Source: Coleophoma eucalyptorum
Lineage: Eukaryota; Ascomycota; Leotiomycetes; Helotiales; Dermateaceae
DNA length: 64,000 nucleotides
Direction of reading: 5' to 3'
Assembly (NCBI GenBank): GCA_026120035.1
Contig: JALRME010000035.1
Span: 1-64,000, forward strand
The notes under the pieces: generated by a model
Databases searched by the model: none
Told to the model about the DNA's origin: nothing
Seen by the model: the letters and a program-made list of their open reading frames with translations, nothing else
Shown here: piece by piece, positions 5,576 through 63,635 of the stretch
Position numbering within the stretch: the stretch's first letter is position 1
How the letters are laid out: each line of letters opens with the position of its first letter
Program-made: the position numbers and the translations under genes

Positions 5576-8000
5576 CTATTCTTGTCTAGGCCATACAACA
5601 TCAGGTCTTCCGCCGGGTAGCATTATACGCAAAGACCAGCCTTGCAATTCATGAACCTCTGCAGCAATACTCTGTAGCCATAAAGTAGGAATAATGGGAA
5701 TCCAGAATTCGCATTTTTCCTTCCTTAAAATCTCTACCCCAGCAGCCCATGAGTGCCAGCTACCTTCCCTGTCTCCACTAGTCAGCTGGGCATGAGCCAA
5801 GGACACATATATCATCGCCGCTGTAAAACCGTGTTCGGACTTCAAAGCGTACATGCGTCCAACCTCCTGAAGGGCAAACCTCCATCGTAGTACAGCCTCG
5901 CCACGGTCTGGTCTCATGTGGGCTATGCGAGCTGTTGCAAGGAGCCTGCGCATGTGCAGCTGCTGGTCGTAGAGGTCGTCCGGTGAAAGAGGTACAGTAT
6001 TTTCTAGTTCCCTGATTACCCATTCTGAATCCTGTAGCTTGTTAAGTCCAATGTTTGCCTCCACAGATGCTAGCAACAGCCGTCGAAATGGGCGACGTGG
6101 ACGATCAGACTCTTTGATGCTGTCGAGCTCTGGCTGAAGAATTTCTAAAACCTTTGAATACTCTTCCATTTCACAGTATATATCTGCTAGCCTACCGACT
6201 ACCAGACGGCGCGTATCGGCACGTATTGGGTTGGCTATATTCAAGGACAGAAACTGTTCAAGGGAGGCCCTAGCTGCTCCGAAATCTCCAACAGATTGAA
6301 AGAATCGTGCTGCTGTAGTTTGAAGCCTCATTGTTACCTCAATATCTAAAGTCGATAATGGCTGTTCTGCTTCCCACTCGTATATAAAGGAGGGTACATC
6401 GTTATCGTAATACTTGATCTTATTCTCAATCTGAGAAATGTGAAGGCGACCCCGAAGTGCATGGTCACGGCGAGAGTATGGTTGTGGACTTCGACACATG
6501 AAATCGCGTATTTGTGCTTCCGACTTGGCAAGTTTGCCATCGAGGCGATAAAGTATACTCTGGAAGAGTACAACTGAGGCGTGAAGATAGTATGGCATCG
6601 ACTTCTGTAGGAATGTCCTTGCCTGGCTGACAGCCATGCGACGAATATTAACCGAGTCTCTCTCAGCAAAATAGAGTGCCGCTTCAATAATTTGGTTTCT
6701 GAGTGACGCTTCAATTTTGTTCAGCTTTGTTGTCTTTTCAAATAACGGCCAGACTGCCTGTTTCATTGACGCTGACCTATGAATCACCAGTAAGTGGCAG
6801 CTTACGGTTTGTTACAAACCAAATCATACCAAGTTGTGTTGCCCTCATAGCAAGGTGGACAAGCAAAGCAGATTAACTTCAAAGCTATAACTCTAAGTTG
6901 ATCTATCGTTTTTGGGAGCAGAGAATGAGAGAGGAATAATCCCAGCTCAGGACATAGAGACCAAGAGATGGTGCCATCATCTAGGTCATGCCTTGTGATA
7001 TCTGGTCTTGCTGTGGCCTGGGCGAGTTCCATATCATCTGATAAAAGATTGATCAGTTCACTAGGTAGGCCAAATTTAGTAGCACTGACACATTCTATCT
7101 CTCCATCGGCGTTCCATCGCCGTTGCGGGAAGCGAACACATTTCAGAAGGAAATCGGGAATGTTAGAGCCACCGAGTGCGTGAAGCAACAGTGGCAACTG
7201 ATCTGAGACTGGAACAACGTCGCCATAATCAATAACAAGATTGTAGTGCAGGTATGATGGAGCAGGATCTAGAGTTATACATTAGCAAGGCACGGTAACA
7301 ATATAGTCTCGGAGATAACCGACAGCGAAGTTGGCCTAAGATTAGGCGCTGCACAATGTTGGCATAGCGCTCGGCCTGTGGATTTAGAGAATTTAAATGG
7401 CTGAATACTTCCTCGTCGTCGATATTAAGATACCTCTCGTAGCTATGACCTGTTAATCCTTTGGGACATTCAAGATGGGGCAATTCTCTCTCACGTTGAA
7501 GGCGGAATATCCAGTGGCAGCCACAAGATTGATCCAAGACCACCAAGTTTTCGAGCAATTTTGATATATTTCCTCCCCGAGTTTCTAAGATCCAGATAGT
7601 TTTGTTGCCCTTGGAAAAGCCCCACAACTTGCGGTGGTACCAACACCTCGGCACCTAGTTGCGACCTGAGAAATATTACAACACAACTAAGCCGTCTCCG
7701 CAGCTCAATATGGATAGCGTCGTCTGTAGGTGCCCAGAACCCATCAACGTCTTCTTTGAATCTTTCGCACACTCGATTGACAGATGTAAGATCAACTGAT
7801 TCCACGGAAAGAGCTTTTAAAGTCCGTTGATTATTCAGCGTGATCCGATACTGAATATCGTGAATGAACGATTTGGATTGAGCCAAGATGGCTCGAAGGT
7901 CTTCTAAATGGCAGTTTATAGCAGGGATCAAATCTCGAGTTCGGTTCTCATCATAATCCTTTGCCAGCTGGTGAACAGTATCGCAGAGGCACGCACCCAT
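5576..8000 (-). CDS. conserved fungal protein with helical-repeat (TPR-like) C-terminus
   Basis: I do not recognise a named function. Four exons (8000-7495, 7442-7324, 7268-6830, 6776-5576) joined by 52-, 55- and 53-nt GT-AG introns give 754 residues with an intact frame. The N-terminal 200 residues are alpha-helical and include LRRRLSCVVIFLRSQLGA. A middle segment beginning near YLHYNLVIDYGD and containing KCVRFPQRRWN and LICFACPPCYEGN has the look of a domain found N-terminal to repeat regions in many ascomycete proteins. The last 400 residues are a run of amphipathic helices consistent with TPR-like repeats. Intron 2 of this model has a weak donor (GTCGGT) and is the least certain join. 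A scaffold or signalling role is only inference. Confidence 0.7.
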
Positions 8001-8414: not shown

Positions 8415-10499
8415 TCACCCGCCAAAGTCTTCCAAATGAACATCTATCCTATCGCCACTTTCGCCCCGAAAATGGTCAGTCGAATCTCTCACCGCGTCCA
8501 TTAGCGACTGTGGCCCACAAGCCGCTACGAGGACTCGCTGGGGACTCCCAGCTGGCTGTAAAGCTTTGCAGATTACAGTTTCAATACTCATTTTCTTGTA
8601 TTCGAACTTGACCATAGGCTCGGCGATTTCGCAAACTGTTTCGCTAACCAGTCTCTGCATGCCATTGGTCTCCGGGACGTCGTTGTGATTAGACTCGTTT
8701 TCCTCTGATACCTCACTTCCCATTTGGGGTCGAATATCTTCAGAACCAATAATACCATGCACATCTTTCGGGGTTGCAATTGGCTCCTCATCGGTGATGT
8801 ATAGTGTTACTTTCACAGTTGACCCAACCTCTGTAAGATTGTGCAAATGTTTGTAAAACCAACTTAAATGCTCTGCTAAATTGTTACTGGAGCCCTAGCA
8901 ATTGAAAGATTCATACTGAAAGTAAACGCACCTGTACGCTTTACAGCCCACACAAATTCAATGGTCTGCAATTTTATTGTTTCAGAGTGGTGCAAAATAC
9001 GGTTCACAAGACCAAAAGTGAACGCAGCCCCGCTCCCTCCAGAAATTAACACCAACTTGTCGTAAACAGTTGTATCCGGCAACGAGCCATATGGCCCGTC
9101 CATGGAAACCCAGGTAGTATTACTAGGGTACTGGACCGTAAATTGGTAAAGTGCCCTGGTAAAGCCTTTTTGTGATTTTATCACAAGCTCCAAACCAGAA
9201 TGGTCGTTACTGACGACAGTGAAGGGGTGAGTCTGGTAGAAATTAATAATTGGAATCCACAAGAAGCAATGCGTGCCCGGCAGGGCAGCTTTGATGCATG
9301 GTTTTTTGAGAAGCAACCGCGTTCCACCATCTGGAAGTTGGTGAAAGGCAACTTGGTTGTTAAAGAAGTTATAAGACATTCTTGATGCTCGAATCATACG
9401 ATCCAGCATCCATATGCAAGCAGTGACGAGCATGACAACCGGGAGCTTTTTCGCCCAGTCTGGCCGGTGCAGCCCTGTCAAGATAACAGCAGATACAAAG
9501 CCAGCGATGTGGCTCACGTAAAAAATCTCGTATTGTCGATGCCTTAAAATCCCCATCAATAAAATCAGCATCGCAATGCCAGAAGCAATGCCTGCTATAT
9601 TGCCTGCTTCCATCAAAGTTTCCCAGCGACCCTGGCGGCCAAAGAATATCGTATAGAAGATCGCATGGAGAAGCACCAAGACTGCCGCCGTATAGCCCAC
9701 GATTCGATGTAGAATATTAAGTTGAATATGCGAAACCTGGGCCACAAGAGATATTGGCGTGTTCTTCAATCCAAAGAAGACACACAGTGCCATATTCGCA
9801 GCACCCATCCTATAGACACAAGTCAGCCACCACATAGAATCAAAGGAAGCAATAGAAATCACCATCCAAATCTGGAGGCCAGATAGTTCATTCGATAGAG
9901 GGGAATGATAGTTGTAGAAAGAACAATGTTGCCAAAAAGATAGATGCCAACTAACAAAATTAGTTCAAAGGCAGGTCGGGCAAGAACGGTCCAGGCTGCA
10001 CGCCTCTTCAACTTGCTATAAATCTATTAGTATGCCATGAGTTTACAATATTAGCTTCTTACTTACTTAAGGATCGGGAGGCATGCCCTGCGACCAATAT
10101 TTCTTGGGCTTGGAGCATTGTTGCAAAGGGAGTGTAACCGGTGCGTCGCAACAGCAAGAAGAATAAGACCACAAAGAAAAGCGGCGTATGCTTTCAAAGC
10201 CTTCTCATTGTTGAGTTGCTTTATGCTCGGTGGCTTGAGCACATGCATCATGTTCACCATGGGCATTTTCAAGGCATCGCGATCTAGCGAAGGAAAGGAC
10301 AGCTGATTATCAGATTGATTGATAAGATAACTGGCTTCCCGATGCTTGTATATACCTTGAGAAAAACACCGTGGCCAAGCACGAAGGTCTCCACTGTGGA
10401 GTATTCCTGTGCCCAAAGACCGCAAACCGCGCAGGTCACTTGTTCATATTTAGCAATAACAAGGGCGGATTGGGGCACTAAAACGTGGTGAACGTCCAT
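8415..10499 (-). CDS. ferric reductase (FRE family transmembrane flavocytochrome)
   Basis: This is a plasma-membrane metalloreductase that should pass electrons from cytosolic NADPH through FAD and two hemes to extracellular ferric (or cupric) iron. Five exons (10499-10356, 10302-10067, 10015-9863, 9809-8932, 8875-8415) give 623 residues with all phases consistent; introns are 51-56 nt. After an N-terminal helix (AFLCGLILLAVATHRL) the ferric-reductase core shows spaced heme-ligand histidines in NILHRIVGY, VLLHAIFY, FYVSHIAG and TGLHRPDW. The FAD site is HPFTVVS, the NADPH site LVLISGGSGAAF, and the C-terminal CGPQSLMDAVRD is typical. The start gives an extracytoplasmic N-terminus but I see no classic signal peptide. 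It is divergent from an MFS gene; a palindromic iron-GATA-like site lies between them. Confidence 0.92.
10303..10330. promoter_or_regulatory. GATA-motif cluster in intron 1 of the ferric reductase
   Basis: Within the first intron the plus strand shows the palindrome CTGATTATCAG followed by overlapping HGATAR motifs in TGATAAGATAA. This could bind a GATA factor, but AT-rich introns produce such matches by chance. Confidence 0.3.
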
Positions 10500-15045: not shown

Positions 15046-17073
15046 TTAGTAGCCCTTCGCTAGCTTCACAAGCTCCGGGAACACCGGGGTACCAAAGCCT
15101 GTAACGGCGTCCCAACCAGCAGTCACAGGAAAGCCAGTGGTATTACAACCTCCATTACCTCCGCTAAGAACATCAGTGAAAGCCTTGTATCCTTTTGAGT
15201 AGATCCACGGGTTCAAGAATCCCATTGGTGGACGCCCGGAGGAAATCAATGCGTCGTTCACCAACGCGATTATTGAGGACATCAGTGGTGTAGAGGCACT
15301 GGTTCCAGAGATGACTTCGAATGTTGAGTTCCAGACAATTTGGAAGTAGAGACCTTGGGCGGAAATATCGGGGTACCCGCGGCCATCTAAAGGAAGTCAG
15401 CTTCTATAGAAAAGACGAAAGAATGGTAGCAGAACTTACTAGGGTTGAAGAGACCTTTGTGTTCTCCATTCATACTCTTCACATATGCAGGGACAACTTT
15501 ATCTTGGTATGATGGGCGCGGGAAGTATTCACTAAATCCACTACCCGATGCATAATATCCGTGAACTTTGCCATCTGGACCAAGACTGTTGTTTGGTCTA
15601 AATGCAGCAACTTCAGGTTGGAAGCCTTGAGTGGCACCGACAGTGGTTACATATGGGCAACTGGGAGGGAATGATGCGATGAATTTGAAGGTATCCTTGC
15701 CATCGTTGGATACACAAGCATCTGGATCGTTTCCAGCAATGTCTCCGGCTCCCCCATCTCCAGAACCGAAGAGTATGGAAGTTCCTCGCACACCGAGCTG
15801 AGCAAAGCCGTTGCACACCCGCTTTGCATAGTCGTATGGAACAGTTTGCTCATCATCCCCGTAGGAGGTGCTGATGACTTGAGGAAGAGATTTCTGGCCG
15901 AGGACATAGTTGATCCATGTCAGATATGGCTCGTTTCCGGGATCGTCACCAGCTGCGACATCGCCAATTTGTGGTGGTTCACCTCCAGTGGAGTATGCAG
16001 TTACTGGCATTGGGTAGCTCATGCCAATGATAGTCTGCACGTCCAGATTGGCTTCCACAGAAATGCCTTCCTCAGCTTGCTCTGCGGTTAGTGGGCCATC
16101 TTGCGATGGTCCACCATCAATATCCACAAATGTGTACTCGGAGGCTCCGGATACGGCCTCTGGCTTATATTTCTCGAGGAACTGCTTAGTATCTGGGCGG
16201 ATGGGAATTTCCCCAAGGAAGTTATTGAAACCGATGTGGTTAATACCGGCAGCCTTCTGCTTATATCCCTTCGTCTTGTACAAAGTAGCAAAGCACTCTG
16301 GTGTGGTGCCATTAATGTTGCAAGCTGCAGCGAGCTCGGGGTCAGTAGGAGCTACATAGCCTGGAGGTGGCCATGGGACACTCGCATCTGCCACATCGGC
16401 CTTCTTTATAGGACGCATGAAGGACGTTGTAGGTTGAATGGCATCCACATGCTCATGGAGGTGCTGGGGAAGTGACCACTCCGGGGCGCGGATTAGCTCG
16501 GATCCATCCTTATGCCTGAAGACATAGTATTCAGTGTCAAGTAGGCGCTCGGCGGATTTAACATCGATTTTAATGCTAATCCAGTCCTTTGCCGGGCTGT
16601 AGTTGAAATCTCCAATGCCGTTGGTAAGCAACCACTCATGGATAAGTTCCAGAGCTTCATCATCTGGCTTGATGAGCTCATTTACCTCCTCGTGGCTCAG
16701 ATGCTAAGCTTATGTTAGTATTTATATTTGCACGTAAGAGAGATTCAATTTACCTGGCCATAGCGGTCGTGGTCCGGATCCGAAACTACATAAGAACTCG
16801 TGTTAATCCCAATTTCTTACATAGAATCCAACTCCAAAATGAGAATATCAACACACCTTCATACAGATGACGCTCCAGTTCCCCAAATTGACCCTGCTTT
16901 ACACCAATTTGCAGACGAAGAACTTTCTCCGGAGGCGCACGACCAAGTTGAGACCATGCCCGGGGAGCTCTGTGAGTCTCCTTCACCGCGTATGCAGTTC
17001 GGGACTGAATTGGCGTGCCGAAGACAGCTTGAGTCGCGACCGCGACGGTCAACAGAATTGAAGCTCCTAACAT
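15046..17073 (-). CDS. secreted sedolisin-type protease (S53, tripeptidyl-peptidase-like)
   Basis: This is a secreted acid serine-carboxyl peptidase made as a pre-pro-enzyme of 617 residues. Exons are 17073-16857, 16785-16754 (only 32 nt), 16703-15440 and 15386-15046; introns are 71, 50 and 53 nt. The start shows a signal peptide (MLGASILLTVAVATQAVFG). The propeptide carries LERHLYE and the SDP...RYGQHLS segment, built across the micro-exon. The catalytic triad is visible: Glu300 and Asp304 in SVEANLDVQ and nucleophile Ser534 in SGTSASTP, with the oxyanion Asp likely in GSGDGGAGD. The calcium-site region near the C-terminus has GWDAVTGFG. All key residues are present, so it should be active. 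Such enzymes digest extracellular protein at low pH. Confidence 0.93.
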
Positions 17074-41704: not shown

Positions 41705-43346
41705 TTATGGTCCATCCCTTTTTTCCATCTTTATCTTAATCCCAACAATACTGATGCATAAAGCACTTGCAAGAAACAAGCCCGCACTAATAAACATTGG
41801 CAATCCAAGTAAAACGTCGACGTGCGTATCTACGCCTAAAGCTAGCAGTTTGGGAAATAACAAACTCGCTAGAAGCTTTCCAAGAATGCTTGCCATACTC
41901 AGTGTAGCTATGACGCGAGCAACACTTTCCTTCTCTACTAAGCTTACAATATACGCCTGAGCTGCAGTCGGTAGCCCCTCACCGAAAAGATATACAATCA
42001 TTCCCGTGATGAATTTAGCACTCGTATCGCTGAATCCAATCAATAGAGCTCCGAACGTGAGAAGCATGCTGCTGCCAGCCATGATTACAAAGTGCGCGCG
42101 ACCTGAGGATCCTAGCTTGGACACCGCAGCCCGGTTGAGAAAAGGCAGTATTATCGAGAAGTGGAGGAGCATAAGGAAGCCCTGAATGGAGACGACTTGT
42201 GACGCCTCTGGAAATGTCCATCCTAGCTTGATGACCGGGTACTGTACTAGACCATACCAGTCGATGGCCTTGATTCCTGTAGCTGCAAAACAGATTGATA
42301 AAGCAAGGATTGCAACGTTGAAAAGGCCGACCCCGGACACGCTTCTAGCGAAAGATTTGATAAGTCTTCGCATCAAGTTGCCCTTCTCTTCTACGCTGTC
42401 CTGGGCCCGTTGTGGTTGTATGGAAGGGATGTCGTCAGTAGTATTTGTTAGGATACCTTTGGATTTCTTGCTCTCACGAACAGTCTCTGGGAATGCGATT
42501 ATAGTTATCAGAGCTGTGGTAACAGATATCAAAAGACTGGCAATCATATTGACTTCCGGAGTGCCGCCTTTGCCGTCCAAGTTCATCAACCACGCACCAA
42601 CGGAAGGGCAGAATGTTTGGGCGAAGTACTGCATAGACGTAGTAAGAAAGAAAAGTGAAGCTCGTTCAGATGCTGATGGCATAACATCCGTGTATGAGGC
42701 AAATAGCATTGCAAGACCGACATCGAAATTTCCGCCAATTAACCCAGGAAGCCCACTTAGATACAGCGTCCATATTGGGATCTTAGGAAATAAGAGATCT
42801 AAGACAAAGGTAAGTAGGCAACTCAAAAGTCATGAGAAGATTCTTACAGGAAACAAGCCAAGATACACACACTACTATCAAGTTGATTTTATGCAATACT
42901 AGCACAGGTTTTCTTCCCCATCGGTCTGCGACCCAACCTAATGGTATGGCACCAACCATGGCAGACAGCATACGCACAAACATAATCAGCCCTGCGGTTT
43001 TTGCCAGCGACTTCTGAATGCTGTCATCCTTACAAAGTCGCTCAGGGATGTGCTTTCCCATTTCTACCAGGGGAGACCCCTGCGCAGCATAGTATTCGTA
43101 GCAGTACATAGCTTCAATAGCCCGCATTGATGCTACCTGTCGGACAAAGTATTCTGCCTCATTGAGGAAGATGATGGAACAACCGAGAAATGGCACCCAT
43201 CGATATCGCGGAGAGATTGTAGTAAATGATGGCCAAAAGCCTCTTTTGGACGCCGTTGGTTCGGATGGGAAGGATTGGGCTTCTTCTGGCAGTGCATTAC
43301 TCAATAGAGGCTCCTGCTCTCTGGAGCCATTTGATCGAGCGAACAT
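41705..43346 (-). CDS. MFS transporter
   Basis: This is a 12-helix major facilitator protein of 530 residues in two exons (43346-42848 and 42798-41705) separated by a 49-nt GTAAGA...TTAG intron with matching phase. The N-terminal third has VGAIPLGWVADRWGRKPVLVL, the classic loop 2-3 motif A (GxxxDRxGRK-like), and a cysteine-containing loop after helix 1 (CKDDSIQ). The second half starts after a hydrophilic loop with EEKGNLMRRLIKSF. The short divergent-looking extracellular loop after helix 1 resembles fungal MFS proteins of unknown substrate that are often found near metabolite genes. The neighbour on the left is the ABM-fold gene, tail to tail. Confidence 0.85.
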
Positions 43347-45071: not shown

Positions 45072-45990
45072 CTAAATATGTAGACCAGTGGTATTTAACA
45101 GAGTGGCCCATTCATGTATTCTATCGAAGTTCCTACAGGTATGATGTACTTTCCAGTTCACGTCATAAACTTGCTCGTCATCTGCGTCCACAAAAGAATA
45201 ATACAAAGGCAGCGGGGTTGTATCTTTATAGCAGCGTATAGCCTGACGAAGGTAATCAATACAGTGGTCTGATAGGTTAATCAGTATTTATGGTTATCTA
45301 TGAATTGCTTTAGAATAAGTCTCACCTGTATGCTTCATGGCATTCACCGGGCTTTCGTTTGCAGCATATGGGTTGCCCCAGGCCATGAGACGCAACTGGT
45401 TTAGACACTATTTCATTAGCTTTGGACAGAAAGTTTTGCCCGATAGCTTACATAAAATTGATGAAACATAGCTATAACAACAGGGTATTTACTCGGATCT
45501 TGATCAGATGCCACAGATGGGGCCGGAAGATTTTTATTTTCCTCCTCCGTGAGAGCGATCACCCCGACTGAGACTCACATTAGACTAAGTATTGGAAACA
45601 GAATATGAATATACTATTCCGAAGATCGTCCCTTGATTTCAGGAGTTGGGCGACCTTCATATTCTGTTACATGCATCGTTGTCGGATGGAAGCCACTAGC
45701 TTTGAATACGACTTCCTCGTACTGAATAAATCTTCTACTGATTCTGTAGGCTTTTAGAAGGAGGATAGCATTAGGCAAGATTGAATTTACTAACTGAGTT
45801 CTGTTTCGGAAGCTTTCCGTGGATTTCGATCGACATTGAAGAAAATAGTAGTGTAAACACAAATAATTATCGCGTGGATAAGAAGTGGTAGCATACGTTG
45901 ATATGGAGTCCGTTTCACAAAATTTTGGCCATCTTGCTTCTTTGTGCTCTCCGTATCTCGGCTGTAAACATTCTTTTCCAAAGATTGCAT
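45072..45990 (-). CDS. UstYa/DUF3328-family protein (RiPP or peptide-macrocycle oxidase), frame uncertain
   Basis: Members are copper-type oxidases anchored by one N-terminal helix that cyclise or hydroxylate fungal peptides (ustiloxin, phomopsin, cyclochlorotine pathways). Exons I support: 45990-45795, 45750-45615, one ending at 45452, 45407-45326 and 45268-45072. Exon 1 has the helix MLPLLIHAIIICVYTTIFF. Exon 2 has VFKASGF and EYEGRPTPEIKG, exon 3 VIALTEEENKNLP, exon 4 CLNQLRLMAWGNP, exon 5 DHCIDYLRQAIRC and HTCRNFDRIHEWA. The second HC motif is intact; the first, normally HxxHC, reads HQFYC, so one histidine is replaced by Tyr. No GT-AG pair joins exon 2 to exon 3 in frame (off by one near a run of four G at 45562-45565), so a frameshift, a sequencing error or an unusual intron is present. 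A peptide precursor gene lies 0.9 kb away. Confidence 0.75.
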
Positions 45991-46851
45991 GAGGGGCTCA
46001 ACGGATGCAGAAATTATTCGAGTAAAGATTTTTGTTACTCACAATATTAGAGGCCTTGTTAGAAGGTTGTCAGAAGGCAGATAAAGGTTGTGATTGACTA
46101 GATATTGTCGCCTGAAATCACATCATCCTTTGGCCAGACAAGTGGCTCAATACTAGATGGGAGCTGAATATCTTGGTGATGCATTGTCTTTAACAGGCAA
46201 GCATTGCGGACCACTCTTTAATGCACTAGTGATAGCCGCTGTGGCTTCTGGATATTCTGTCATGGGCGCAATGCACAATACCCAGCGTTCAAATATAGTG
46301 CCCTTTTGATTCTCCACACTATATTAACAGGAAAGTCGACGATGTCAAACGCCACGATGGGGATATTCTTAAAAGGATCAGATTCCTTTCCCTTTTGGAG
46401 CTTGGATAAAACAGCCAGGTGCTGCAAAAAGTTTAATCTCTGATGGAAAACGGCTAGGAAATTGGGCAACCAGAGCTTTGAACGAGGTACATGACAGCAG
46501 TTGGTAAATAAGTTAAGGGTATTACCTTCATACTTGGGCTTCCTGCAAAATTCAGATTTAAAAAGGCTTCAGAACGCTTACTAAAATAGCGTTAGATAAG
46601 TTTCAAGTTAGGAAAGACATGTAGCATAGTTGATCCTTGGTGTTACCTCAATTATTATACCCCCCTGTTGTACCTATATCACTATGCAGTAGCACTAAGA
46701 AAGAAAGGTAGAAGTAGAAATCAAGCATAAAAGGCCATGAACTCCTGAAACTAAAAGCCTAACTTCAAACTCCGCATCCTTGATTAACTTGGATAGTTAA
46801 TTCTCAAAATTTCCATACTTCCTACATCCTTTATATTTGTATAAACCCATC
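45991..46851 (-). pseudogene. possible decayed gene between UstYa and the precursor
   Basis: The minus strand shows coding-like pieces in different frames: AFLNLNFAGSPSM (about 46570-46530), KALVAQFPSRFPSEIKLF (about 46480-46420), KNIPIVAFDIVDFP (about 46370-46330) and ERWVLCIAPMTEYPEATA (about 46290-46240). They run in order but I cannot join them with consistent introns, and I do not recognise the family. A broken tailoring gene or a gene with several short exons are both possible. The part nearest 46852 is the promoter of the precursor gene. Confidence 0.3.
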
Positions 46852-47094
46852 ATGAAGTTCTCCCTTCACTTGACTTTGATAGCCTCCTCATTGCTACTAT
46901 TCGCCATAGTAACTCCAATTCCAGCTGATGCTGAGATTTCTACTTTTGGAAAGCGAGCTCCAGGAAAGTTAATGCAGAGTCACTACGCTGGCGTGGACGA
47001 AGATGACGAGGCAATCGAAAAGAGAGCTCCAGGAAAGTTAACGCAGGTTCGCTACGGTGGCGTGGATGAAGAAGACAAGGCGCCAGAGAATTAA
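46852..47094 (+). CDS. secreted repeat precursor peptide with Kex2 sites (candidate RiPP precursor)
   Basis: This 80-residue single-exon product has a clear signal peptide (KFSLHLTLIASSLLLFAIV, residues 2-20). Lys-Arg pairs at residues 34-35 and 57-58 each precede the same block APGKL, defining two repeats of 23 and 22 residues. Each repeat then has a variable SHYAGVDEDD or VRYGGVDEED stretch. Precursors of ustiloxin and phomopsin likewise have a signal peptide and Kex2-cut repeats in which a short core starting with Tyr is followed by acidic residues; YAGV and YGGV are candidate cores here. The ATG is the first in frame; the codons before it lack one. A UstYa-type gene on the left supports the RiPP reading. 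Alternatives are a Kex2-processed secreted repeat protein or a pheromone-like peptide. Confidence 0.7.
   Translation: MKFSLHLTLIASSLLLFAIVTPIPADAEISTFGKRAPGKLMQSHYAGVDEDDEAIEKRAPGKLTQVRYGGVDEEDKAPEN
46951..47091 (+). repeat. two tandem repeats of the precursor peptide
   Basis: Two direct DNA repeats, each starting AGCGAGCTCCAGGAAAG or AGAGAGCTCCAGGAAAG and ending near GATGAAGA or GACGAGG, encode the KR-APGKL...YxGVDE units. The blocks KR-APGKL and GVDE are conserved and the residues between them vary, which is the pattern of selected core diversity around fixed processing sites. Confidence 0.7.
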
Positions 47095-48124
47095 GCTATT
47101 GGAAATATGAGTCTAGTTCAAGTATCTGCTGTCATCTGCAACGGATTAAATGCATAGGAGGATTAGTTCTTTTGTTGTCGTGTTTGGCAATATTTTGGTC
47201 AATAGAAGCTTGCTGTCTCACCCTGAAATATAGCTTCTGTCTAATTTCACTATAACTGTCGTCTGTTTCTCGAGCAGTCTAGAGGTATGTATATTGATAA
47301 AGGATAGAGTTTAGCGACACCCTAGCTTTTCGCGCTAATATAAGTATACTAGATTATAGAATCTCACAATGGTAAGCTTACTGTTGTGATGATAGAGTTG
47401 AAAAAGTACGAAGAGCAGTTTCAGAGTATTGCCACAGATCAGCGGACATCGCTACCGGCCGGAGGCGGGTTATTTGGGGTTAAAGGCCCACCCATAGCAG
47501 ATGCAATCAGAGGAATTCGGGTGAAGAGGAATTGGGTTTTGAGAGAGCCGCTATTCTTGGATTAACGATATGTCGCGTAAGAAGCAGCGTTAATATGAGC
47601 ACATGTATACTGCTACTACTATAGTTACTAAAGCAGGCTGGCTTGTCTGTTTTGGCAGTATAATGTAGTGCTGTGTAACAAGATATCTAAGTTATTGCTT
47701 CCTTTATTATGTAAGGAACTTTGGGGTTATGTGCTAAGCGAAGAACAAGAAATACTAAGGTACCTTAGGCTTTGAATTCTGGCTGACTAACAAATAATTA
47801 CGCCTTTCAGTAAGTTAAAGAACTTCTGAGCATATATTTTGAACCGGAGACAAATAGAACTTAATTGACCTAGATTTATTTTGAAGATCCCCCTTGAAGT
47901 TGGGAACCATTGCATCAGCGAAAGGCGAGGCATTATGGTTTGATTTATGGGACAATCTAGAAGAGAGGCACAGGCTTATGGTACTAGTACTATAAGGTTC
48001 TAGTGTTTCGTCGAGTAGGCATAAAAAGGGGCTAGCTTCTCCTCATTTTCCTTCTTTTTTACTACCAAACCACGACTAGAGCTCTACGGTTGAATGCAAG
48101 TTAACGTCGCTATAAAGCAATATA
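47095..48124. other. intergenic region of the RiPP-like locus
   Basis: Apart from a short plus-strand frame at 47389-47565 (reported separately) no gene is seen. The right end holds the promoter of the acyltransferase. Confidence 0.45.
47389..47565 (+). CDS. 58-codon open frame of unknown meaning
   Basis: It starts at MIELKKYEEQF and contains the glycine-rich block PAGGGLFGVKGPPIAD before ending in REPLFLD. The composition looks coding compared with its surroundings, but there is no signal peptide and I recognise no family. It may be the relic of a larger gene. Confidence 0.2.
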   Translation: MIELKKYEEQFQSIATDQRTSLPAGGGLFGVKGPPIADAIRGIRVKRNWVLREPLFLD

Positions 48125-49357
48125 ATGATATTTTCGAGCCAAAACTCGCTTCAGCTCTGGCTCGAATCCTTCCAGCTGCACCAATTTGGGACCGCTTACG
48201 CCTGCACCATTGGAGTCATTTGTTGTCTCGCCTATGCAGCTACTCAGAGCCCATTCTCGCGGATTCGATGGCTAATGCTTGTTCCTATCACCGCATTGAC
48301 TTTCACCACAGCTTATTCAGTGCTGAAAGTCCAGGCATTTCCTCCAATACGTGCAGCCATGGGTTTTACCTTGGGAACAAGCCTTGCACTAGAGTCTTTC
48401 AACCATCTCTGTATCCGCAGGGCCTTTATAGACCTCAAGAAAAAGCCACACGACAGGTCCACTATTTGGTACGCGTTTTGCTATGGGGCTGATTTGGTCT
48501 TCAATAAACGTTTGATCGGGACAGCACATCAGGTCAAAGGCGTACCAAAATGTAGCTCCAGCGATCCCAGTTATGTGCCATCAAGGACTCAATTCCTCAC
48601 TTTTCGGACTATAAGAATCCTCCTCTTATACGTGCTTTGTGGTTTACTCCTCCGCGAACCACCACTGGAAATCCTTAACATTTGTTATCCCGTTGACAGG
48701 TTGGCATTTCCTATCCGACTTATCCAAGGAAACGTTGGAATTATGGAATGTACATATCGCTTTATCCTGACATTCAGTTTCCTGGCAAGCACCTGTCTGT
48801 TCCAAATCTTAGGCCATGATTGCCTTTCTGTTATCGCTGTGGTTATCTTAAACAATAACCCGGCAGACTGGCCGCCCCGTTTCGACTCAATTGCAACGGC
48901 ATACAGTTTGCGTAGCATGTGGAACACATTCTGGCACCAAGACCTACGTGCGATGTTGACAGGTATCTCAAATTTCATATCAGATAATATTCTTTGCCTA
49001 CCGAAATCGGGCGTTATACAACGCTACACCAAGATCTTTCTCTGTTTTGGTATCTCGGGCTTGGCGCATATCTATAGCGACATGGCAGGCAACATTTCAC
49101 CTACTGAGACCAACGTGGTTGCGTTTTTCTTGTCTATTGCAACAGGCATTCTTATCGAGGACCTAGCCAAGGCCATTTATCACTGGGCAATAACGAAACG
49201 AGGATTTAAATCTCATAGAGTGGAGCCGTCTCTATGGGAGAAGGTTGCGGGATACCTATGGACCCTATTTTACCTATCTCTTATAACACCCCAATGGGCA
49301 TGCTCCCATATGGGCCAGGAGATAGCACCAATGCCAGGTTTATCAGGGTCACTTTAA
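48125..49357 (+). CDS. MBOAT_2 / wax-synthase-like membrane acyltransferase
   Basis: This single-exon polytopic membrane protein of 410 residues has about eight hydrophobic helices. The signature of the fungal wax-synthase-like acyltransferases is present: SMWNTFWHQDLRAMLTGISNFI followed by helix FLCFGISGLAHIYSDM, whose His is the probable catalytic residue, and EDLAKAIYHW near the C-terminus. Such proteins transfer acyl groups from acyl-CoA to hydroxyls; several are tailoring enzymes in fungal secondary-metabolite clusters. The ATG at MIFSSQNSLQL is the first in frame after the promoter. It lies 1 kb downstream of the precursor peptide in the same orientation, so acylation of a modified peptide is a possible role, but this is inference; a role in lipid or terpenoid acylation is equally open. 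Confidence 0.8.
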   Translation: MIFSSQNSLQLWLESFQLHQFGTAYACTIGVICCLAYAATQSPFSRIRWLMLVPITALTFTTAYSVLKVQAFPPIRAAMGFTLGTSLALESFNHLCIRRAFIDLKKKPHDRSTIWYAFCYGADLVFNKRLIGTAHQVKGVPKCSSSDPSYVPSRTQFLTFRTIRILLLYVLCGLLLREPPLEILNICYPVDRLAFPIRLIQGNVGIMECTYRFILTFSFLASTCLFQILGHDCLSVIAVVILNNNPADWPPRFDSIATAYSLRSMWNTFWHQDLRAMLTGISNFISDNILCLPKSGVIQRYTKIFLCFGISGLAHIYSDMAGNISPTETNVVAFFLSIATGILIEDLAKAIYHWAITKRGFKSHRVEPSLWEKVAGYLWTLFYLSLITPQWACSHMGQEIAPMPGLSGSL

Positions 49358-51135
49358 GCAGCATTCTAGAGTCTACTAATACCCGAAAGTATTTTCTTCA
49401 ATATTCGAAATTATTTAGATACTCTACTTAGTTATCATCGTGTTTCCTTAAAGCCTGGCAATCATAGAGACTATAATTAAACCCAAAGCTAATGATATTT
49501 CTATAAAGCTACAAGTATGACTAGCCTTGAGCGTACTGAGTATGAATCATAACTATGTACCGATCGCTCCAAGAAAACATCAAGTTATTGAGGTATTACT
49601 ACTCCTGACGGATGGTTATAGTCATTCTTAGGTATGATCAATTTGTTATGATGGACCAGTTCTTTCAATGTGGTTCACATAGCATGCCTACCGGTAAACC
49701 CTTCTAAGGAAGTATGTTTACCTGACCAGGGCGCCCCTAGCAGTACAAAAGACTCTCCAATGTGCGGTAAAGGTTTCCTTGATACTCTACGCGGCCGCTG
49801 TGGTACCATCTTGGCATGGGGATATAGTCCACAAAATGGCAGAAAAGACTCATATTACGGCTTTAATCCTGTTACTGAGTATGCAAATTAGCTTTATTGA
49901 TTACACTTTTTGGCATAAATCAATGCTAACTAATCTTAAGGTGCCATTGATATGATGTCCAAGATGCTTTCCAATCTACCAACGGTAGTGACCAAGGGTT
50001 GTGATGCAGCTGAGATTCATGCGAAGAATTTATTTGGAATGACAGTTGAGATATAGCTGGCTTTGAAAGTGTCCAAAGGCACTTTTATTCTTTCTTGGGG
50101 GACTAAGCTATGCTTAATTTATAATAAAAGATGTTGGTTTCTGTTAAAATATCGTTATTAGGTCGTCATACGACGCCGGTACCCTCGTTTGTAGCCATGT
50201 GATACCACAGACAGAGCAGGGTGTTAATACCCTCCTCTGCCACATCTGACTTACAAGAATTATTTACGTTATTACCTTATGATTTTGATCTATGATTTAC
50301 AGCTAGAAGTAAGGTAAACCAACAGTTCCAAAGGACTATGGGATAATGCGACATGTAAATACCCTCTTTCGCGCAGGTCTCCCTTTCCCTATTTTACATT
50401 CTATTGCACGCAAGCAATGTGGAGTACGTTGCGTTGAAGTATGGGCTCTTAATATGTAGTACGGATTGTGTGTGTGCTGTGTTAATAAAAGTAACCTTCA
50501 ACGTCACCTGATCGCATTAATTAGATGGCAATTCTTCAAACACATGCAATACTGATTTAAGTGCGCGCTAGCAAGGCGAAGTGAAGCACTATACCCTCAG
50601 GATTTCAACTTGAGCAAGATTACGTGTCTTTTCGCGCAAATATAAGATGTAATACAGGTAACTCTAATTTAGGTAGAAATTTCTACAAAGGTTGGGGGTG
50701 CTTTATGTCATGACATGAGAAAAAATTAAGTAATAATTAATTCCTAGGCCATAATGTAAGGTTTAAAAATTGTCTTATCATCGCAATACCCTCTTATTGT
50801 GAATCAATCCCCCGCAATCCAGAGTACAGACAAGCTAACGGCGGTGCAAGACGCAGCATCATTGGTGCCCACTCATCAACGACCCCCGGGCAACTCTCGC
50901 ACACCCAGACACCCCATTTGTCTCCGTCGGGCTGTATCCGACACTCCGGAAGCTCCGTCGGTCCACGACTACTATCATATTGATCACGTCGGCAACACCG
51001 CTGTGTTTAGTTTCGTAGTATATCGTATATCGAATACTATTCTGCTTTCGAGAGGATCCTCAATTGCTGTATGCTTCCTTCTTTCTCATCCGAATTATCT
51101 TCAACCAAACCATAGAAGTATAGGGAGCCAAAACA
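49358..51135. other. intergenic region with a possible secreted-protein relic
   Basis: Contains the relic reported at 49682-50056. The remainder is AT-rich. The stretch from about 50800 to 51135 is less AT-rich but has only a chance frame and should be the promoter and leader of the next gene. Confidence 0.45.
49682..50056 (+). pseudogene. relic of a small secreted cysteine-containing protein
   Basis: A first piece reads MCGKGFLDTLRGRCGTILAWG. After an intron-like gap with CTAACTAAT...TTAAG a second piece reads AIDMMSKMLSNLPTVVTKGCD and ends at a TAG at 50054-50056. The GFLDxLRGRCG pattern recalls small secreted proteins of plant-associated ascomycetes. The pieces do not join in phase with the visible donor, and no signal-peptide exon is found upstream, so I read this as a broken gene with low certainty. 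Confidence 0.3.
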
Positions 51136-52743
51136 ATGGGGATTATTCCAGCCCGAAAAGCTGTTGCCTTTTCCCTCAAGAAAGGACAGGATGTCAAGGT
51201 CATAAATACTTACGGCAAGCAAGTTGTCGATTTCTGGGCTTTTAACCCAAACGATTCTAATGACTTCCTCTCCATGGTGCACACGAGAACTATTCTCCTG
51301 AAAGTATCTTTGCGCACAGGCGACAAATTGTACAGCACTCGACGCAAGCCTATGCTGACACTGACCGAGGATACCACACCCGGCGTCCACGATATCATAT
51401 GGTCGGCGTGTGATGCCGAGAGATATCGGATGCAAGGTTACGATGGGTATCACGATAACTGCACCGATAATATGCACAAAGCTTTAAAGGATAATTTTCC
51501 CGATTTTGGCATTGCGGATGACTGGGTGCCTGATCCATTCAATGTCTTCATGAATGTGGGAATCAATCACCATGGGGGATTAGATATCAAGCATCCTACT
51601 AGCGAAAAGGGCCAGTTTGTGAGCATGAAAGCAGAAACCGATCTAATCATCGTCATGAGCGCGTGTCCTCAAGATATGGCGCCAGTTAACGCGGGGATGC
51701 CTACTGACTGCGAATATCAAATCAGTGGGGTAGAAACGGATTCCTCAATCGTCCAGACTTCGATCCCGTCAGCGCTTTCTTTGAACCGTCGCCGTCGTGT
51801 TAAAGTTGCCCTCTCTTTTGACTTCGACGCCGTATCACACTGGCTTGGAACCGGTTGCCACCCGGACAACAATATGGCAGACTATAGCTCTGGGATTTTT
51901 GCCGGGCAAGTTGGGGCAATTCGACTTCTTGACATGTTGAAGAAGTATGATGTTTCCGACAAGGTGACCTGGTTTATCCCTGGTCACACCATTGAGACTT
52001 TCCCAGACACGGTTCAAAAAGTTGTCGAATCAGGGGCTGAAGTTGGTCTTCATGGGTATTCCCATGAAGGCATATACCAGATGACGGAAGAACAAGAACG
52101 GGATGTTCTTCTTAAATGTATCGAAGTTGCTACGAAGCTTGTGGGCAAAAAGCCTCGAGGTTACCGTGCTCCTATGTATACCATTCGGGAGACCACGATC
52201 AAACTCCTACGACAGCACGAGTTTCTTTACGACACGTCACTTATGCACCATGACTCGCAGCCCTATTTCACGCCTAATGACCCTCCAATTCAACCAATTG
52301 ATTACTCTCAACCAGCTTCCTCATGGCTCAAACCCACGCCAATTGCTCCTCAATCTTACCCCGAGGGACTGCACCCCTTGGTCGAGATCCCGTGCGGCTG
52401 GTACAACGAGGACATGATGCCTTTACAATATCTCCCACATCTTGCTAACAGCATGGGCTACGTATCTACGCGGGTCGTGGAACAGATGTGGAAAGACAAA
52501 TTCATGTGGCTCTGGGACAACAGTAAAGGGGGACAGAGTGACTCGTTCGATTTCATTTTCCCAATTTTAATGCACCCTGATACCAGTGGTATGGCACATG
52601 TTATCGGTATGGCCGAGCGAGTGGTTCAATGGCTGAAAGGATTTGGTGATAGTATTGAATTTTGTACGCATGAACAGATCGCCAACGCTTGGTTGGGAGC
52701 AGAACAGAAAAAGGCTGCTGCGGCTGGCAAATCAGATATTTAA
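51136..52743 (+). CDS. DUF1989-polysaccharide deacetylase fusion protein
   Basis: This single-exon protein of 535 residues joins two domains. Residues 1-195 form a DUF1989 (urea-carboxylase-associated, cupin-like) domain: KAVAFSLKKGQDVKVINTYG, QVVDFWAFNP, SMVHTR and PDPFNVFMNVG. Residues 225-500 form a polysaccharide-deacetylase/PuuE-like NodB fold with ALSFDFDAVSHWLG, the metal-binding GLHGYSHEGIY, and RGYRAPMY. DUF1989 proteins associate with urea or ureide metabolism, and PuuE-type deacetylase folds include cofactor-free allantoinases, so hydrolysis of a ureide or amide is a reasonable guess; chitin or peptidoglycan deacetylation is less likely because there is no signal peptide. The fusion was not one I can tie to a studied enzyme. 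Confidence 0.88.
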   Translation: MGIIPARKAVAFSLKKGQDVKVINTYGKQVVDFWAFNPNDSNDFLSMVHTRTILLKVSLRTGDKLYSTRRKPMLTLTEDTTPGVHDIIWSACDAERYRMQGYDGYHDNCTDNMHKALKDNFPDFGIADDWVPDPFNVFMNVGINHHGGLDIKHPTSEKGQFVSMKAETDLIIVMSACPQDMAPVNAGMPTDCEYQISGVETDSSIVQTSIPSALSLNRRRRVKVALSFDFDAVSHWLGTGCHPDNNMADYSSGIFAGQVGAIRLLDMLKKYDVSDKVTWFIPGHTIETFPDTVQKVVESGAEVGLHGYSHEGIYQMTEEQERDVLLKCIEVATKLVGKKPRGYRAPMYTIRETTIKLLRQHEFLYDTSLMHHDSQPYFTPNDPPIQPIDYSQPASSWLKPTPIAPQSYPEGLHPLVEIPCGWYNEDMMPLQYLPHLANSMGYVSTRVVEQMWKDKFMWLWDNSKGGQSDSFDFIFPILMHPDTSGMAHVIGMAERVVQWLKGFGDSIEFCTHEQIANAWLGAEQKKAAAAGKSDI

Positions 52744-58798: not shown

Positions 58799-61700
58799 CT
58801 AGCAAAGACTCAATTTCTCAACCTGATACTGCCCTCGCTCAATATCCTTAGCGACCTCTCCCTTCATAAGCCCTTCGAAAAAACAAGCTCCAACCATCTC
58901 ATACGAATCACCTCGAGGTCGAAGCACCATCGGCGTGTCACAGGTAGAAAGAACTACAATCTTATCGCCAAACTGCGTGAGTTCGGGCACCATGCCAAAC
59001 AAACCATTGCGCGATATACACAATCTATTGCCCTTAGCAAACCCACCCAGCTCACTCGCAAGTTCCAAAAATGTATGTGGATCAGGGCACACCTCGTCCA
59101 TCGATGCGGTGAAGTAGTTCCTGAGCGGTTGTCCTCCAACGTTAATCCCCTCATTCCCATACATATAGCGCGAAAAGTAGCTTTTCAGCTGGCTGACGGC
59201 GTAGAATCTTGGCCATTGTCTATCAGCGTCGGAAAAATGAAAATGTTGACAGTCCTCGAACTCAAGGCTATAATCGACTTGGTCATCAATCTCATCTCTC
59301 GCCAGCCATGGGATATCCAGAACTGACGGAGAGTCAGAAAATTCAAAGTGGCTATCCTGAAGGAGAACTCGTGCAATCGTTCGTTTCCATTCCTGATATG
59401 TGAAACGCGCCGGATCTTTAAACTTCTGCTGCGGGTCGAACTCTATCTCAACTGGCACGTTTAATCTCGACACTGCAGTCCCTAACAAGCTAATTGAATC
59501 CAAAATAGCTCCATAGGTAAATAGTAAACGATCGTCCTCGGAGAATGTTACCTCCGTCATGGAAATTCCCAGATTTGCTTCATAATCCCTATAGCGCTTT
59601 GCGGACTCTACGGCATAAGTTATATCGAGCTTTTCTGTCAAGTTCAATGTCCACGAAGGAAGGTCTTGGACCGGTGACAGGTCCTGTCGATTTTTAGCCA
59701 AGATGTTCAGGTTTCCCGCTGCTTTAAAGCATGCCTTTGAGAACATGGTAAAGGCATCCACTACGCTAAAAGATGGATTGTAATTTGGGCGGACTTGTGC
59801 TGCGATTTCACTTGGAAGTAGAGCTAGAATACCATATACCTTATCTCGTAGATCTGTTGCTTTGGATTGTTGAGTGAGATGCATCAGCTCCACAAGCTCG
59901 AGGTGTTTCTTCTTAGAATCAGCGCCATTTGGAGGACGTAGAAGTGCCAGGCGGGATTGGATCTTGCTACTGTTAACTACGCAGCTTACAATACTCTCGG
60001 GGTCGTCCCAGTTAATGTAGTCACGAAACTCATTTTTCTTCATACCCTGGGCAAGAAGAAAACAGCAGGTGGCTATTTCTCTAGTGGTGAAAGAGTACTT
60101 ATCATAGCAGTAGAGTACCGAAGGAGCGAGGGCAATCTCTTGGATGATCCATAACCTCTCCCAGTATGGCGAGGATGATATGGCTGATATCGCTTTCCAA
60201 ATGGATTCTTCTGCTCCTAGGTTTGCAACTACGTCCCACCGAATATCGCGTCTGTGACTATTTGCCACAGTGTCTAGCACTTCTCTCAATACCGGGAGCA
60301 CAGCGGCAACAGAGGGGCTTGTCGGTCCCAGAAACCCTCTCACCGATATGCACTGTGAGTAGATGGCATCCATCTTCTGAACTTGTGCCACACGTTCTTC
60401 AAGATCAAGTTGGTTGATGCAGATTGCATCAACCCAGACATGAAGATTCATGCGATGAACTTCCAAAGAATCTCGAAGGTGGAGGAGTGCTTGGTATAGA
60501 TTTTGAGTGACGGAAAACAGATGGCCGTTTAGTCGAATGTTGCGTCTCGCTTTGGCATCACCCCAGACATAGCTCAAAGCAATGTAGTCTCCCCAGTTGA
60601 AACGGGGATAAATATCCTCGACCCCTTCAAAAGTGGCATCGTTGTTGTCCCGTAATCGTGATTCAAATTTTTTAACAAGATCCTCTCGTGACTCAGACCA
60701 TTTGGCAGGGTCCTGGTGCAACCCTTCCATTCCGCGCTGGTTAGATCGTTGTAGAGATGCACTCGTGAAGTGCCATCCCGCAAGGCAAGATTTTGATGTA
60801 TCGGGAAGTCCCGAAGCTTTATATTGTGCCTTGTATTCTGGCAGCCAGAGTCTGTACAGATACGACCAATCGTCCAAATCGACGGTTTTTATGGTACATT
60901 GAAGAATATTATCTTCATCCTTGCCATTATGAGCTGTCTTCGGTTCAATAGATAAGACTCGGATCTGGTTGCTGTTGGGTTTTAAAGGAGTGTATTGGTA
61001 CGGTTCTTCCAGATTATTTGTGACGCTCTCGTCTGTGTCAGACCCAAGTTCTTCTATTCTCTCTGATATATTGCTCGTAGTTTCGGGTGTGTAAAGTGGA
61101 TGCGTTGACATGTTTGGGAAATTGAAACTCGTAGTGGTCTTGTAACCTTCAGTAGTACCTGGAAATTCGCTTTCGTCCTCCTCTAGATTCTCCGCCTGCG
61201 CTATCTTCTCTAACGCTGCAGGGTCAAATTCTTTCGCAAACGCCTTAATACCAGAGAGAAAGGCCTTCGACACGGTAGCGGGGCTTCTCTGGAATGCCTT
61301 TTCGAAGTGGCATTGTTTCAAAAGTCGCTTTGCCTGCTCCTCCCGACCAACGAAGGTATCGCAAATCAAGGCGGCCTGTATGCATACTGTTTTGATATCA
61401 GAACCAGAGTATCTCCAAGACTTCCTAGCAAGATATTCGTAGCTGACATCTGCGTCGAGGATCTCATCTCTTAGGCAGATTTGAAATATCTTTACCCTGT
61501 CACCCTTATTTGGGAGGCCGATGTGGATGCGGCTCGGGACACGACGAAGTAGGGCATGGTCCAAATCGCGGGGGAAGTTGGTGGCCAGAAGTACAAATGG
61601 AGGAGTCTTATATTTCCTGAGACCATCCATCTCGTATAGGAATTGGTTGATTTGATTCCGTTCCCAACTCTTGTCGTCAGATTTCCGGTGTCGAAACAGC

Positions 61701-63635
61701 GAGTCGGCTTCATCAAGGAAGATTGTACAAGGAGACAGCATTCTGCCCAGGTTAAAAAGCCCCTTGATGGCTTTCTCAGTTTCACCCACGTATTTATTCT
61801 CAATATCTGCGGCTGAGACACATATCATGACGGCGTTGGACTCCCGCGCGAGCACACGAGCAAGATGTGTTTTCCCTGATCCAGGTGGTCCATAGAGTAA
61901 AGCTCCTCCTATACGGCCCTGCTTCAGAATGCCGTAGTCGAGGATACCTATGTTCGATGGTTGGTGCATCAAACGTACAATAGCATCCTTCACCTCTGAG
62001 TCCAATGCAATATCGGACCAACCTTCTTCAACTTCTTCGGGGTTGATCAAAAGGTCAAGAAATTGATTCTCCCATTCGAAAACGTCTTCCGGGTCATCTT
62101 CAATTTCCTTAATTACACTCTGTGTCTTTGCCGAGAAGCTTGACCATCGGGAAACGCGTGATTCGTCTTGTACAGCACTACACCAGTCGTCTAGAGCTTC
62201 CATCCTACGTCCCAAACGGAGGACGGCTTTGGTGATGTGTCCATCTTCCACATTTTGGCCAATACTCTGAAGTAATCCATTCACTTCCTCTTCGCGTATT
62301 TCTTCTTTTGCTAGCTTTTTCTGGGTTGGGGTGCCTTCTAGGAATTTCCACTTAGTAAAAGGCTGTACCAGTGGTAATGTTTTATGCTTCACGGACATTC
62401 GCCTGATGGACCGTTGTAGCACCCGAATATTTTCTAGCTCATAGGACTTTTCAAGCTCTTTCTGGGTATCAAACAAAGCCTTTTGGGCTTGGGTGCGCAT
62501 GGGAGCCATACAAATGGCATCAGGTCTTGGGTTCGTGCCGAGTGTGCTCAGTACAGTAGAATCCCAGTGAAACTTATGTCCACGACGCTTGCGACTGTTG
62601 GTCTCAAAGCGTGAATAGCGGTTGGGCCGTTCAACAGGGTTAGGTGGCGGCATACCTCTAACTGGTCCATAGCCGCAGGATATATAATCAGTGCGTGGCA
62701 CCGCTAAAGGCTCAGCTCCCCGGTCCTCTGTTGAGATTATAACTGCATCGATATTAGCATCGCGCAGCCCCTCTAGAATGTCCCATTCGTCTACATCAAG
62801 CAGTTGGTGAATTCTTGGCAAGAGAATAATTAGTGGATTGCTGGTCTTCGCAGTAGCTTTCTGGAGAAGATCTCTTCTTCGCTTGATGTTGGGGGAAGAT
62901 AGAAGGGTAAAGAACATCATGCGCGCGGAAGCTGACTCCTATATAAATAGCTATTAGGCGGGAAGAAATTTTCTGTATTAACTGGGACCTTGCCTTTGTG
63001 TCCTTGTTAAAGGTGTCGTCAGAACTATCATCGTCATCTTCTCCATAGTAATCACGAGTATAGGTATCCAGAGGATCTTCTGTTCCAGCTTTCGGTACCA
63101 AGCCCGTGAAGTGCTCTAAAAGATCAATGAAATCCTCTACGCCCAACGTGATAAGATCGGCTCCAGCATCTTGCGCAAAGTGCTCCACGATCGTGCTGAG
63201 GAACTGAATCCCTCCTTTCGTTCGGCCCTGGTCAGGGAAGCGGAGGTGAACAGCATCATTCCTGAAGAATTTTGTGTCTTTTAATTCACTAGAATCCAGT
63301 ACATTTGCACCGCCGGTAAGAATGTCCAGCAGCGGCTCATATACGGCTGCTGAAACTTCATAAATCTCTGGTAGAGGGGTATCTGCTTCTTTTCCCTTGT
63401 CAAAACTGGTAGACACGTCTTCTCGGATAACCAAGGGGATCTTAGTTGCTCCCAATTCCTCTGCGGTTTTTACACAGTTCTCGAGGAACCACTGAGGAAT
63501 TCGGGGTGCGAAGTCTTCAATGCTGTGGGAGGAGACAACCGGCTGGTCAGGCTTCTGTGTCGCTTTTCGGGGACGCGGGACCCTCGCTCTAGTCCGACGT
63601 AGTCCCCCACATCTTGTGGGATACACTGGGCACAT
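58799..63635 (-). CDS. AAA+ ATPase-HET domain fusion protein
   Basis: This giant protein of 1593 residues in two exons (63635-62994 and 62938-58799) joins an AAA+ ATPase to a HET domain. The intron that fits is 55 nt with a GC donor (GCAAGG) and TATAG acceptor; the nearby GT donor would break frame. The N-terminal 215 residues are unassigned and acidic. Walker A is GPPGSGKT at 564-571 and Walker B FLDEAD near 624, with sensor-like LLATNF and an Arg-rich LLRRVPSRI segment, as in p97/FIGL-type AAA ATPases. The HET domain runs from YIALSYVWG (999) through VWVDAICINQ to WERLWIIQEIAL (near 1145). HET domains trigger incompatibility cell death. Such a coupling suggests an ATPase sensor or unfoldase driving a death effector, which is inference. 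Confidence 0.85.

What the first reader, a model, noticed from the sequence alone, without database searches (positions are those of the whole stretch)
45072..49357. Candidate dikaritin-like RiPP locus: UstYa oxidase, KR-repeat precursor and membrane acyltransferase
An 80-residue secreted precursor with two KR-flanked repeats lies between a UstYa/DUF3328 gene and an MBOAT_2 acyltransferase. Known fungal dikaritins (ustiloxin, phomopsin, asperipin) combine a Kex2-processed repeat precursor with UstYa oxidases. The repeat text (KR-APGKL...YAGVDE / YGGVDE) matches no precursor I can recall, and an acyltransferase partner would be unusual.
Basis: partly seen in the sequence, partly recalled or inferred. 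Interest (0 to 1): 0.88.

Follow-up and report, generated by a model that had tools for sequence, protein, structure and literature searches.

The report
Probably decaying fungal repeat-peptide locus
A fungal gene for a small secreted repeat peptide sits beside a gene of the ring-forming oxidase family used for fungal peptide natural products, but the oxidase gene looks broken here, so this is more likely a fading relative of a known class than a new working pathway.

Summary
A UstYa/DUF3328 gene (about 45072-45990, minus), an 80-residue precursor with two KR-led 23-residue repeats (46852-47094, plus) and an intact MBOAT_2 gene (48125-49357, plus) lie side by side. The precursor/UstYa pairing is the known dikaritin-type arrangement; 3 of 20 other UstYa neighbourhoods examined in this genome also hold KR-repeat ORFs. 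Three points weaken the reading as a working new dikaritin. (1) The UstYa gene looks degenerate. Its P-x-E-I-(D-x-x-W)-x-x-L block is split between two frames with no room for an intron, and the second His of the first HxxHC motif is Tyr; 13 of 13 copies recognised in other loci by a pattern allowing H, Y, F or N keep His. (2) There are two repeats; the published survey required three. (3) MBOAT is linked by adjacency only; its 61% paralogue has no UstYa hit on its contig and no KR repeat in 8 kb. No precursor homologue was found. Best reading: a relic or decaying locus of dikaritin-like design. Assembly error is not excluded.

The parts
45072..45990 (-). UstYa/DUF3328 gene, probably degenerate: TM piece, YEE..PTPEI piece, RDDL piece in another frame, VIALTEEE..HQFY piece, CLNQLR..KHT piece, DHC..WATL piece; start codon inferred
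   Evidence: PF11807 61 bits at 45105-45407; last piece 3.4e-16; frame pieces; splice enumeration
45583..45666 (-). stretch where the conserved P[ST]xE[ILV]DxxWxxL block of UstYa is divided between two overlapping reading frames
   Evidence: frame pieces; no listed intron keeps both halves; 7 of 7 P[ST]xE[ILV]D strings found in six other loci run on to W
45452..45463 (-). first HxxHC motif, read HQFY with C after an intron: second His is Tyr
   Evidence: 13 of 13 copies recognised by a pattern allowing H, Y, F or N keep His
46852..47094 (+). 80-aa precursor with signal-like N-terminus and two KR-led repeats
46951..47088 (+). two tandem 23-residue (69-nt) units; Tyr-bearing stretch HYAGVDE / RYGGVDE
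48125..49357 (+). MBOAT_2 (wax-synthase-like) membrane acyltransferase, intact, WHQ and SGLAH motifs kept; membership of the locus not shown
   Evidence: PF13813 1e-21; 65-67% identical to four proteins, three of them from Coleophoma
41705..43346 (-). MFS transporter on two overlapping frames, possible but unproven neighbour of the locus
   Evidence: PF07690 2.9e-10 and 4.6e-6; frames

Best explanation
The locus has the design of the known Kex2-processed-repeat precursor plus UstYa (dikaritin-type) pairs and is probably a decaying relative of them. In its working state the precursor would enter the secretory path, be cut by Kex2 after each KR, and have its Tyr-bearing stretch (YAGV / YGGV) cross-linked by the neighbouring UstYa oxidase. 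Shown here: the genes, the repeat, the UstYa kinship, the divided block and the His-to-Tyr difference. Inferred: secretion, Kex2 cutting, the position of the core, and loss of oxidase activity. As the sequence stands, at most linear peptides are expected unless another of the genome's UstYa enzymes acts on them. The MBOAT gene is probably an independent neighbour.
For: UstYa match. KR-repeat precursor 862 bp away and divergent. Same pairing in 3 of 20 other UstYa neighbourhoods fetched. Conserved UstYa block divided between overlapping frames, no listed intron keeping it. HQFY in place of HxxH, against 13 of 13. Two repeats, against five KR-led units in L020, five or more in L034 and at least three visible in L026, where part is masked. 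No decayed further unit found in the flanks.
Against: The precursor and MBOAT frames are intact. RIP-type base bias is not seen in the three genes (substrate index 1.21-1.38, window 1.26), though the 47001-48000 bin has a raised TA/AT of 1.14. The first frame change (TM piece to YEE piece) can be bridged by several candidate introns, one with an AAG acceptor and one of 41 nt, so only one interruption is firm. A splice that drops the divided block keeps frame (45654 to 45567), so a shortened protein is possible. An indel error in the assembly would look the same.
Confidence: 0.55

Rival explanations
1. A working one-oxidase dikaritin-like locus (asperipin-like architecture) whose UstYa gene only seems broken because of an assembly error, or which makes a shortened but active UstYa by unusual splicing.
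For: Intact precursor; last piece a good UstYa match, with second motif HTDHC intact once spliced; single-UstYa clusters are known (PMC7329392, section 7).
Against: The Tyr in the first motif is not explained by an indel or by splicing; no listed intron keeps the PxxEIDxxW block.
Confidence: 0.25
2. The precursor is a secreted linear peptide (hormone, effector or pheromone-like) cut by Kex2, and the UstYa neighbour is a remnant with no role in it.
For: Most surveyed repeat precursors (6120 of 7878) have no DUF3328 neighbour (PMC7329392, section 7); the UstYa gene here looks broken.
Against: The repeats carry Tyr beside a UstYa gene, and in the same survey 65.6% of repeated sequences with a DUF3328 neighbour carry Tyr against 38.2% without.
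Confidence: 0.14
3. The MBOAT_2 enzyme acylates the processed or cross-linked peptide, giving an acylated dikaritin-like product.
For: Adjacency, same strand as the precursor, intact conserved motifs. Acetyltransferases of another family (GNAT) occur in lichen UstYa clusters (PMC12048977, section 21).
Against: The 61% paralogue on C79 has no KR repeat or HxxHC motif in 8 kb and no UstYa hit on its contig. There is no co-expression evidence; beside Tyr, the units have one Ser (first) and one Thr (second) as possible O-acylation sites.
Confidence: 0.06

Closest known systems
Kex2-processed repeat proteins (KEPs) with DUF3328 neighbours (Umemura 2020, PMC7329392)
   Same: Signal-like N-terminus, KR-led tandem units with Tyr, DUF3328 gene as the next gene
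   Different: Two units only, where the survey required three or more of at least 8 residues; last unit not closed by KR; UstYa gene interrupted
Asperipin-2a cluster (one UstYa homologue; passages and sections)
   Same: One UstYa gene beside a repeat precursor; a transporter gene about 2 kb beyond the UstYa gene
   Different: No asperipin-type reductase seen near it; the one reductase match in the frames scanned is a ferric reductase at 8879-9964 (its NAD-binding part at 8418-8894). The core differs (asperipin FYYTGY is recalled); UstYa interrupted
Ustiloxin / phomopsin clusters
   Same: Core stretch with Tyr followed by small and branched residues (YAGV here; ustiloxin YAIG is recalled)
   Different: No second UstYa match in the window; no tyrosinase or S41 peptidase among 29 of 34 frames scanned. 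A sedolisin-type pro-domain (Pro-kuma_activ) lies at 15390-16703, about 29 kb away
Lichen 'Clan R2' UstYa clusters (PMC12048977)
   Same: Single UstY gene with acyl-transfer genes nearby
   Different: There GNAT acetyltransferases and no conserved repeat found; here MBOAT_2 and a repeat precursor

Membership tests
Dikaritin / KEP-UstYa RiPP | precursor with secretory signal | tested here: inconclusive
   N-terminal hydrophobic stretch, mean hydropathy up to 2.67 over 11 residues; no signal-peptide predictor available
Dikaritin / KEP-UstYa RiPP | tandem units led by Kex2 sites | tested here: met
   two units of 23 residues, each led by KR
KEP as defined in PMC7329392 | three or more tandem repeats of at least 8 residues between Kex2 sites | tested here: not met
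   two units only; no further unit found in the flanks
Dikaritin / KEP-UstYa RiPP | DUF3328/UstYa gene beside the precursor | tested here: met
   PF11807 61 bits, cut-off 25
Dikaritin / KEP-UstYa RiPP | UstYa with two intact HxxHC motifs and a continuous domain | tested here: not met
   first motif HQFY/C, conserved block split between frames; second motif HTDHC intact once spliced. For this reason it is not filed as a dikaritin, only as built like one
Dikaritin / KEP-UstYa RiPP | cross-linked cyclic product | not testable with these tools
   needs mass spectrometry
MBOAT_2 / wax-synthase-like acyltransferase | Pfam profile and conserved His motifs | tested here: met
   PF13813 1e-21; WHQ and SG(L/V)xH kept in all five aligned sequences

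The most novel reading that the evidence does not exclude
A live two-core dikaritin-like locus with a new core (YAGV / YGGV), in which a divergent UstYa with a HQFYC first motif still works and the product is O-acylated by the adjacent MBOAT_2 enzyme: an acylated member of the class.
Probability: 0.05. Interest if true: 0.65.

Novelty: new member of a known kind. Interest (0 to 1): 0.3.

Why it matters
The kind meant under novelty is the wide one, a KR-repeat precursor beside a UstYa gene, not a dikaritin proper. If the decay reading holds, this is a fungal repeat-peptide locus caught while losing its oxidase, in a genome that holds other UstYa loci with longer repeat arrays; it would help to show how such clusters die or revert to linear peptides. 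If the gene is in fact intact, it adds a new core type to a class with few characterised products.

Tried and rejected
RIP as the cause of decay: not supported, indices of the three genes are near the window average; one bin (47001-48000) has a raised TA/AT of 1.14. Further decayed repeat units in the flanks: best score 28 against a shuffle maximum of 31. Precursor paralogues in the genome: none beside itself. Protein database: no scored homologue (1 candidate, 2 candidates); the database does hold fungal proteins, but short unannotated ORFs can be missing. Repeat text in papers: 0 papers for five strings. Solved structures for MBOAT: none at E 1. NCBIfam for MBOAT: none. Paper searches for acyltransferase or MBOAT with dikaritin or UstYa, for membrane acyltransferases in fungal clusters and for UstYa with pseudogene gave nothing that I recognised as on point from listings and starts of abstracts; most of those papers were not opened. 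Changes between the two units (4 nt synonymous, 10 nt not) say little about selection.

Full report
Setting. The window is G000:C30:1-64000 of a 45.26-Mb genome in 101 contigs. The four proteins found for the MBOAT gene at E 0.001 are 65-67% identical; three are from Coleophoma species and one from a metagenome. A related Leotiomycete-type ascomycete is therefore likely; the placing of Coleophoma is recalled, and no call named the organism.

Observation. The three genes are there. PF11807 (UstYa) matches 45105-45407 minus at 61 bits, and the last piece alone gives 3.4e-16. The precursor runs from 46852 to 47094 with two 69-nt tandem units, 16 of 23 residues alike. No KR-led repeat of that sort arose in 20 base shuffles of the window or in 20000 residue shuffles of the mature part. 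MBOAT_2 is intact at 48125-49357.

The UstYa gene. Reading the minus strand frame by frame gives: a TM piece (45793-46038); a piece with RRFIQYEEVVF...TEYEGRPTPEI, open to 45617; a piece with SRDDLRN in another frame (45583-45666); a piece with VGVIALTEEE...MFHQFY; and two last pieces with CLNQLR...KHT and DHCIDYLRQ...WATL. The last three join by ordinary introns. The TM piece can be bridged to the next by several candidate introns, among them one with an AAG acceptor and one of 41 nt, so I do not count that as an interruption. PTPEI and SRDDL overlap on the DNA in different frames, which leaves no room for an intron; the frame-keeping junctions listed (GT or GC to AG, at least 15 or 30 and at most 300 nt, set ranges) all drop one half or both. 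In other loci of this genome the P[ST]xE[ILV]D string, found 7 times in six loci, runs on to W in 7 of 7. For the first HxxHC motif I counted 16 copies in 14 of the 20 loci by eye from the rows, all with the second His. Three of these (L018, L020, L028) were found only by a pattern that demands His, so the fair count is 13 of 13 by the pattern that allows H, Y, F or N. Seven further rows of that pattern not followed by Cys were set aside as unrelated; six of the 20 loci gave no first-motif row that I counted. Here the motif is HQFY, then C after an intron. A published lichen study reports the two HxxHC motifs in all its signature genes (PMC12048977, passages). I conclude that the gene is probably degenerate. 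Only the last piece scores by itself; the earlier pieces are placed by motif.

Baseline in the genome. One search gives 47 UstYa matches, which I grouped by hand into 27 loci including this one. A scan for KR-led repeats (frames of 40 aa and more, KR only, introns ignored) found ORFs in 3 of the 20, L020, L026 and L034, and the one here. L020 shows five KR-led units, L034 five or more, and L026 at least three beside a masked stretch. So the pairing is not unusual in this genome, and the array here is the shortest seen.

Acyltransferase. The WHQ and SG(L/V)xH motifs are kept in all five aligned sequences. The closest paralogue in the genome (61% over 408 residues, C79) has no UstYa hit on its contig (a list that gives lower bounds) and no KR repeat or HxxHC motif in 8 kb. 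Adjacency alone links MBOAT to the peptide.

Neighbourhood. One search kept 34 window frames of 150 aa and more; 29 of them were scanned with Pfam and five were not (starting at 7494, 10727, 24050, 29290 and 55722). No tyrosinase, methyltransferase or S41 peptidase was matched. A sedolisin-type pro-domain lies at 15390-16703, a ferric reductase at 8879-9964 and an MFS transporter at 41705-43346.

Literature. PMC7329392 (abstract and sections 6 part 1, 7 and 13): 7878 KEPs in 1345 of 1461 strains, 22% with DUF3328 nearby, definition of at least three repeats. PMC12048977 (passages and section 21). PMC10512285 (passages): five dikaritins reported at its date. PMC9233826 (passages). No paper of the library held any of five strings of the repeat.

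Conclusion. A real locus of dikaritin-like design, probably decaying; it fails two of the tested defining features and is not filed as a dikaritin. The acyltransferase partnership is unproven. Interest is modest.

Noticed in passing
L034 (G000:C56:23850-33840), about 6472-7726 plus: KR-repeat ORF with many GEQSVDPEGMFSTSVD units near a UstYa gene; no Tyr in the unit; partly masked.
   Followed up: partly
L020 (G000:C101:759630-769620), 6711-7151 plus: KR-repeat ORF with units carrying two Cys (AELYGCASNTKRDNFGRCIKEREASPEP) near a UstYa gene.
   Followed up: no
L026 (G000:C7:962500-972490), 3616-3882 minus: KR-repeat ORF with SNYGEYS units between two UstYa matches; partly masked.
   Followed up: no
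window 58802-62938 minus: One 1379-aa frame with an AAA ATPase domain followed by a HET domain.
   Followed up: no
window 51124-52740 plus: Fusion of DUF1989 with a polysaccharide deacetylase domain.
   Followed up: no
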